Shown here one piece after another: positions 4,222 through 4,293 of a stretch of 38,895 nt of DNA (position 1 is its first letter; each line of letters opens with the position of its first letter). Under the pieces are notes generated by a model. The model was not told the origin of the DNA and made no database searches. It saw only the letters and a program-made list of their open reading frames with translations. A program made the position numbers and the translations under genes. The stretch lies in IMG/VR virus record IMGVR_UViG_3300048686_000146, positions 1-38,895 of that record, one strand, 5' to 3'. The stretch comes from a virus.

Positions 4222-4293
4222 ATGTGGACTAAACCATCAGCAACAGAAATGAGATTTGGCTTTGAAGTAACGATGTATGTTATGAATAAGTAA
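4222..4293 (+). CDS. pqqA: PqqA, coenzyme PQQ precursor peptide
   Basis: The 23-codon gene encodes a peptide beginning MWTKP and ending [12 protein letters not shown]. PqqA is a 22-29-residue ribosomal peptide. The radical SAM enzyme PqqE, with chaperone PqqD, cross-links its conserved Glu and Tyr; later enzymes (PqqF/G, PqqB, PqqC) turn that pair into pyrroloquinoline quinone. All hallmarks are present: MW-x-KP at the start, Arg11, Gly13, then Glu15-Val-Thr-Met-Tyr19 with the required E-x3-Y spacing. Length equals the 23-24 residues usual in gamma- and betaproteobacteria. No pqqB-E is in the window, so host enzymes must process it. It has its own leader, a strong ribosome site and a terminator directly after the stop. 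Confidence 0.9.
   Translation: [23 protein letters not shown]

What the first reader, a model, noticed from the sequence alone, without database searches (positions are those of the whole stretch)
4222..4293. Phage-encoded PqqA: a candidate PQQ auxiliary metabolic gene
Seen: a 23-codon frame with all PqqA hallmarks (MWTKP start, Arg11, Gly13, Glu15 and Tyr19 in E-x3-Y spacing), strong ribosome site, own leader, terminator after it. Known: PqqA is the substrate peptide of PQQ synthesis; one peptide is used per cofactor, and PQQ serves methanol and glucose dehydrogenases. Inferred: the phage supplies extra precursor to keep PQQ-dependent methanol oxidation running in an infected methylotroph. 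No other pqq gene is present, so it would tap the host pathway. I cannot tell whether this has been reported for related phages.
Basis: partly seen in the sequence, partly recalled or inferred. Interest (0 to 1): 0.92.

Follow-up and report, generated by a model that had tools for sequence, protein, structure and literature searches.

The report
Phage gene for host cofactor precursor
A virus of methanol-eating water bacteria carries a 23-amino-acid gene that is almost letter-for-letter the host's precursor peptide for the enzyme cofactor PQQ, behind a version of the host's own PQQ control site; the same overlooked gene sits in every cultured virus of these bacteria that we could check.

Summary
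Confirmed. Window 4222-4293 (+) encodes [23 protein letters not shown], a true PqqA (PF08042 43.3 bits, cut-off 21.1; TIGR02107 40 bits, cut-off 20). The window is a relative of LD28 phage P19250A. The peptide is identical to that of OM43 phage Venkman and one residue from a common Methylophilaceae host PqqA. All nine methylophage records found carry it (P19250A, Venkman, MEP301, MEP401/402, four Melnitz; several unrelated lineages), unannotated; P19250A was stated in print to lack such genes. Two IMG/VR pattern scans each hit their 120-contig limit; in the one fixing only residues 1-13, all 120 copies keep Glu15, Tyr19 and 23 codons. No other pqq gene lies in the window, five whole phage genomes or 120 viral loci.
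New here: many phage pqqA genes have, about 37 nt before a -10 box, a version (window 4125-4140) of a site that in hosts lies mostly upstream of pqqA (CTMATGATTTTCATKAG; 75 hits in 60 genomes, reversed control 0). The phage seems to carry a self-standing pqqA cassette wired to the host PQQ regulon, adding precursor for host PqqB-E. Viral PqqA was reported before (Baikal methylophage), so the kind is known; near-universality and operator sharing are not in papers I found. Function untested.

The parts
4222..4293 (+). pqqA: 23-codon PQQ precursor peptide gene, [23 protein letters not shown]
   Evidence: PF08042 43.3 bits; 100% identical peptide in phage Venkman
4125..4140 (+). PQQ-box-like operator TAATGATTTTCTTGAT (overlaps the stop codon of the upstream gene)
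   Evidence: only match of TMATGRTTTTMNNKA in the window; invariant block in its clade; enriched about 200-fold upstream of phage and host pqqA; pqqA-associated in host genomes
4162..4167 (+). predicted -10 box CATAAT, 37 nt after the operator start
   Evidence: the preferred spacing in phage pqqA upstreams (24 of 64 at exactly 37 nt); inference
4210..4215 (+). ribosome-binding site AAAGGA
   Evidence: read directly; conserved purine block in phage and host copies
4295..4322 (+). intrinsic terminator hairpin with U tract, usable on both strands
   Evidence: z -4.1; minus-strand version found

Best explanation
It is a phage-borne, self-standing pqqA expression cassette. Shown by sequence: a genuine PqqA coding frame under purifying selection, with the Glu and Tyr that become PQQ intact, no other pqq gene, its own terminator, and an upstream site of the kind that marks host pqqA genes. 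Inferred: during infection of a Methylophilaceae (LD28/OM43-type) host, the host activator of its PQQ genes also drives the phage gene; the extra peptide joins the pool that PqqD and PqqE bind and cross-link, and the host pathway turns it into PQQ. Because one peptide is spent per cofactor and PqqA supply limits PQQ in at least one relative, this keeps PQQ-dependent methanol dehydrogenase (probably lanthanide XoxF) charged while host genes decline. It copies the host's own strategy of many dispersed single pqqA copies beside one pqqBCDE set.
For: Family match. Present in all nine methylophage records found, from several unrelated lineages; the other three of twelve hits among 50,697 records are ctXG6705, an uncultured Venkman relative, and two Acinetobacter records, of which the one opened is a bacterial-looking contig with pqqABCDE. 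In a 7.8-kb stretch of the window the pqqA cassette is the only DNA-level similarity to Venkman, MEP301 and MEP401/402, pointing to independent gain or exchange. TerL relatives infecting SAR11, Vibrio and others are absent from the PqqA list. In the window's own clade it is in 3 of 3 near-complete contigs with TerL of 78% identity or more, and 0 of 9 more distant ones. 120 of 120 copies found by residues 1-13 keep E15, Y19 and length; pN/pS 0.185 among eight phage copies not chosen by pattern. Phage copies form their own sequence groups (same-type nearest neighbour 83% vs 51% shuffled; AGA arginine codons 46 vs 2), so they are not host contamination. Operator core in 64 of 142 distinct phage upstreams vs about 0.002 expected each; 69 of 93 motif copies in 1.5 Mb of phage DNA precede a pqqA; in hosts 26 of 30 palindrome loci precede pqqA and 1 pqqB, and another motif copy precedes a PqqU-type PQQ importer. 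Hosts carry 1-12 pqqA copies (3-12 in PMC4109929); PqqA supply is described as rate-determining in Methylovorus (PMC11317620 citing Ge 2015).
Against: No transcript, protein or PQQ measurement. The operator core is absent or degenerate in about half of phage upstreams (and half of host ones), and is only a 1-mismatch match in Venkman (reversed), MEP402, ctXG6705 and Melnitz. The regulator is unknown. M. extorquens was reported not to need its pqqA, though orphan copies were not examined (PMC11317620). Named methylophages MEP431-434, HIM624-A, phiMB624-A and Venkman EXVC038S could not be checked. The host of this window is inferred from relatives.
Confidence: 0.8

Rival explanations
1. The peptide still becomes PQQ, but the benefit is superinfection exclusion: more PQQ keeps the outer-membrane PQQ importer PqqU in its closed, liganded state and so blocks PqqU-using competitor phages.
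For: PQQ blocks infection by a PqqU-targeting E. coli phage (PMC12124388); a Methylotenera genome has a PqqU homologue behind the same motif.
Against: No evidence that methylophages use PqqU; PqqU was seen as a target only once; unrelated phage lineages would all need to gain the same benefit.
Confidence: 0.05
2. The phage peptide is a decoy that occupies PqqE-PqqD and lowers host PQQ.
For: It would bind the same enzymes; phages do encode inhibitor peptides (general knowledge).
Against: The residues that are cross-linked and the 23-residue length are kept in 120 of 120 copies, and the sequence tracks host PqqA; a decoy should lose E15 or Y19.
Confidence: 0.03
3. The peptide or PQQ serves lanthanide handling rather than dehydrogenase charging.
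For: Orphan pqqA genes respond to lanthanide supply in M. extorquens and a role in lanthanide uptake was proposed (PMC11317620).
Against: Only a suggestion in another class of bacteria; the Methylophilaceae site groups pqqA with pqqB and a PQQ importer.
Confidence: 0.05
4. A passenger host gene, or host DNA in a viral assembly, with no function for the phage.
For: Small genes are easily carried; four 72-nt copies are identical between viral and host sets.
Against: Present in cultured phage genomes; purifying selection; own codon habits; recurrence in unrelated lineages with promoter-like site.
Confidence: 0.04

Closest known systems
PqqA, PQQ precursor peptide family (PF08042 / TIGR02107), Methylophilaceae type
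   Same: Same length, motif, Glu-x3-Tyr core, solo gene arrangement and upstream site; differs by one residue from a common host peptide
   Different: Encoded in a phage with no pqqBCDE; the upstream site is nearer the start codon (median -89 vs -124) and always in one orientation
Lake Baikal methylophage population VP_266 PqqA (PMC7678222)
   Same: Viral pqqA proposed as an auxiliary metabolic gene of methylotroph phages
   Different: That phage is T4-like with methanol dehydrogenase; the paper states that P19250A, this window's relative, lacks such genes, whereas it carries pqqA; no operator was described
Dispersed orphan pqqA copies of Methylophilaceae genomes (3-12 per genome, PMC4109929)
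   Same: Stand-alone pqqA copies supplying one shared pqqBCDE set, with the same kind of upstream site
   Different: Chromosomal, not viral
Cyanophage auxiliary genes such as psbA (from general knowledge)
   Same: Phage copy of a fast-consumed host component that keeps host energy metabolism running
   Different: Here the product is a 23-residue cofactor precursor, below the usual gene-caller size limit

Membership tests
PqqA (PF08042 / TIGR02107) | Profile score over curated cut-off | tested here: met
   43.3 vs 21.1 bits and 40 vs 20 bits
PqqA (PF08042 / TIGR02107) | Conserved Glu and Tyr in E-x3-Y spacing that form PQQ | tested here: met
   E15 and Y19 present; 120 of 120 viral copies chosen without regard to them keep both
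PqqA (PF08042 / TIGR02107) | Cross-linked by PqqE with PqqD | not testable with these tools
   needs biochemistry
Phage auxiliary metabolic gene | Host-like metabolic gene inside a bona fide phage genome | tested here: met
   window has TerL, portal, major head protein and tail genes, 81% DNA identity to cultured P19250A over 61% of a 25-kb stretch
Phage auxiliary metabolic gene | Retained under purifying selection | tested here: met
   pN/pS 0.185 in eight phage copies not chosen by pattern, small sample
Phage auxiliary metabolic gene | Expressed in infection and alters host metabolism | not testable with these tools
   no expression data
Host PQQ regulon (site defined here) | Carries the pqqA-associated upstream site | tested here: met
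   TAATGATTTTCTTGAT at 4125-4140; matches the relaxed motif, not the full host palindrome
Host PQQ regulon (site defined here) | Bound by the host regulator | not testable with these tools
   regulator unidentified

The most novel reading that the evidence does not exclude
pqqA is a near-universal gene of methylophages across unrelated lineages, overlooked because it is too short for gene callers, and these phages have captured the host's PQQ-regulon operator along with it, so that an infected cell reads the phage gene as one more of its own pqqA copies.
Probability: 0.6. Interest if true: 0.75.

Novelty: new variant of a known kind. Interest (0 to 1): 0.68.

Why it matters
Methylophilaceae are important methanol consumers in coastal seas and lakes. 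If almost every phage of this group carries the precursor of the cofactor of methanol oxidation, then precursor supply is a point at which viruses steer one-carbon metabolism, and carrying a host operator is a way for a phage gene to respond to metabolic demand. It also shows a blind spot: genes under about 30 codons are largely absent from phage annotation, and the published statement that P19250A lacks such genes does not hold for pqqA. The pqqA-associated site gives a handle to find the unknown regulator of PQQ synthesis in these bacteria.

Tried and rejected
Host contamination: rejected by cultured phage records and phage-type codon habits. Decoy peptide: disfavoured by invariant E15/Y19. 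Other pqq genes or known structured RNA in the window: none. No tRNA genes. A generic sigma-70 scan found no promoter before the gene; the -10 assignment rests on spacing to the operator. PHROGs returned no PqqA family. Accessions guessed for MEP431-434 were not held or were other phages, so these remain unchecked. Papers on Melnitz, MEP301, MEP401/402 and Venkman do not mention PQQ genes; PMC13188868 lists viral pqqA only in an annotation tally; PMC11118758 only notes a PqqA-like family co-expressed with defence systems; a methane-metabolism virus survey does not mention it. The first scripted tally of motif targets used a faulty pattern for pqqA and was redone (one search replaced). pN/pS of the large viral set (0.196) is biased by the search pattern and is not relied on. 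The strict host palindrome was not required for phages.

Full report
What is there. The frame at window 4222-4293 (+) reads [23 protein letters not shown] and ends in TAA. It scores about twice the curated cut-off of both the Pfam and NCBIfam PqqA models. The record itself is a viral contig of 38,895 bases with one PqqA match. It holds terminase, portal, major head protein and tail genes and is 81% identical in DNA to the cultured LD28 phage P19250A over 61% of a 25-kb stretch. So the gene lies in a bona fide phage related to one that infects freshwater Methylophilaceae.

Distribution in cultured phages. tblastn of the 23 residues against 50,697 phage records gives twelve records. Nine are phages of Methylophilales or Methylophilaceae: Venkman (100% identical), P19250A, MEP301, MEP401, MEP402 and four Melnitz isolates. 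One is an uncultured phage, ctXG6705, whose terminase is 74% identical to Venkman's. Two are Acinetobacter records; the one opened carries pqqABCDE and looks like a bacterial contig. In six of the nine records and in ctXG6705 the profile search confirms a single copy each, and a SAR11 phage taken as control has none. In five of the six cultured phage records opened there is no feature over the gene, and in Melnitz and ctXG6705 a CDS is drawn on the opposite strand. In Melnitz the frame opens one codon earlier, MKWTKP. Phages that share a terminase family with Venkman, MEP301 or MEP402 but infect SAR11, Vibrio and others do not appear in the PqqA list.

Distribution in metagenomes. A degenerate DNA pattern for GFEVTMY finds at least 120 viral contigs, every one a full PqqA. 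A second pattern that fixes only residues 1-13 again reaches the 120 limit; all 120 keep Glu15, Thr17, Tyr19, Asn22 and end after exactly 23 codons. None of the first 120 viral loci, nor the window, nor five whole phage genomes holds another pqq gene. 112 of 156 viral loci encode proteins similar to the window or the reference phages; of ten loci tested from the remainder, several show portal, terminase or T4-like baseplate proteins. In the window's terminase clade the three near-complete contigs with at least 78% terminase identity have pqqA and nine more distant ones have none, as expected if the gene follows the host.

Relation to the host gene. A pattern for the [11 protein letters not shown] core in bacterial genomes returns 120 stretches, nearly all Methylophilaceae or other betaproteobacteria by title; the commonest peptides are [23 protein letters not shown] and [23 protein letters not shown], the latter one residue from the window's. 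Ten host genomes have 1-12 copies each, in line with 3-12 copies beside one pqqBCDE set in PMC4109929. Phage and host copies are distinct populations: nearest neighbours are of the same type in 83% against 51% for shuffled labels, and AGA arginine codons number 46 in phage but 2 in host copies. Eight phage copies not chosen by pattern give pN/pS 0.185. The only DNA similarity between window 1200-9000 and Venkman, MEP301 and MEP401/402 is the roughly 75-90 bp pqqA cassette.

The operator. Comparing upstream regions, the same words are enriched before phage and host pqqA. The core T[CA]ATG[AG]TTTT[AC] occurs 50-170 nt upstream in 64 of 142 distinct phage sequences and 59 of 123 host sequences, against about 0.002 expected per upstream from the rest of the same loci. 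In phages it is always in the same orientation and most often 37 nt before a YATAA box; 69 of 93 core matches in 1.5 Mb of phage DNA precede a pqqA. In six members of the window's clade the block TAATGATTTTNNTGATG is invariant while the leader after it varies, and it persists where the upstream sequence differs. In the window it is at 4125-4140, the only match in 38.9 kb, with CATAAT at 4162-4167. In hosts the full palindrome CTMATGATTTTCATKAG occurs 75 times in 60 Methylophilaceae genomes while the reversed pattern occurs 0 times; of 30 loci fetched, 26 precede pqqA by 95-139 nt and one precedes pqqB. With a relaxed pattern in four genomes, 11 of 18 precede pqqA, one pqqB, and one a TonB receptor whose best PDB relatives are the PQQ transporter PqqU/YncD. 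This marks a pqqA-centred regulon site. Melnitz, a T4-like phage, has a one-mismatch version with TATAAG 36 nt on (sequence, spacing counted by eye). Function as an operator is inference.

Mechanism. PqqA is spent one per PQQ; PqqE with PqqD cross-links Glu and Tyr (established knowledge). PqqA availability is described as rate-determining in Methylovorus (PMC11317620, citing Ge 2015). The best reading is that the phage adds one more host-regulated pqqA copy to the cell. Expression, processing and benefit are not shown.

Known or new. Viral PqqA as an auxiliary gene was proposed for a T4-like Baikal population with methanol dehydrogenase, and the same paper says P19250A has none of those genes (PMC7678222); P19250A does carry pqqA. 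The papers on Venkman, Melnitz, MEP301 and MEP401/402 do not mention it. No paper found describes the shared operator; only open-licence papers were searchable. I therefore call it a new variant of a known kind. The main limits are the unexamined methylophages MEP431-434, HIM624-A, phiMB624-A and EXVC038S, and the lack of any experiment.

Noticed in passing
Host genomes, e.g. L377, L387, L389-L418: A 17-bp palindrome CTMATGATTTTCATKAG behaves as a pqqA-centred regulon site of Methylophilaceae, also before pqqB, a PqqU-type receptor, and a few times before a glycine-zipper-like protein (L381, L408, L417). Regulator unknown.
   Followed up: partly
L033, L036, L012, L021, L026, L032: Other viral contigs carry PqqA of a different type (for example MKWSKPTYQKLRLGFEVTMYFKQV), two with a portal protein, suggesting phages of other PQQ-making hosts also carry it.
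   Followed up: partly
L238: A genome-collection contig whose pqqA upstream and downstream match the P19250A group; probably a phage contig binned with a bacterial genome.
   Followed up: no
CAKLQF020000010 (L008): A record named Acinetobacter phage holds ppk and pqqABCDE in order and looks like bacterial chromosome.
   Followed up: partly
window 5853-6821 and 10390-10941: A glycosyltransferase family 2 protein and a 2OG-Fe(II) oxygenase, possible modification genes of the phage.
   Followed up: no
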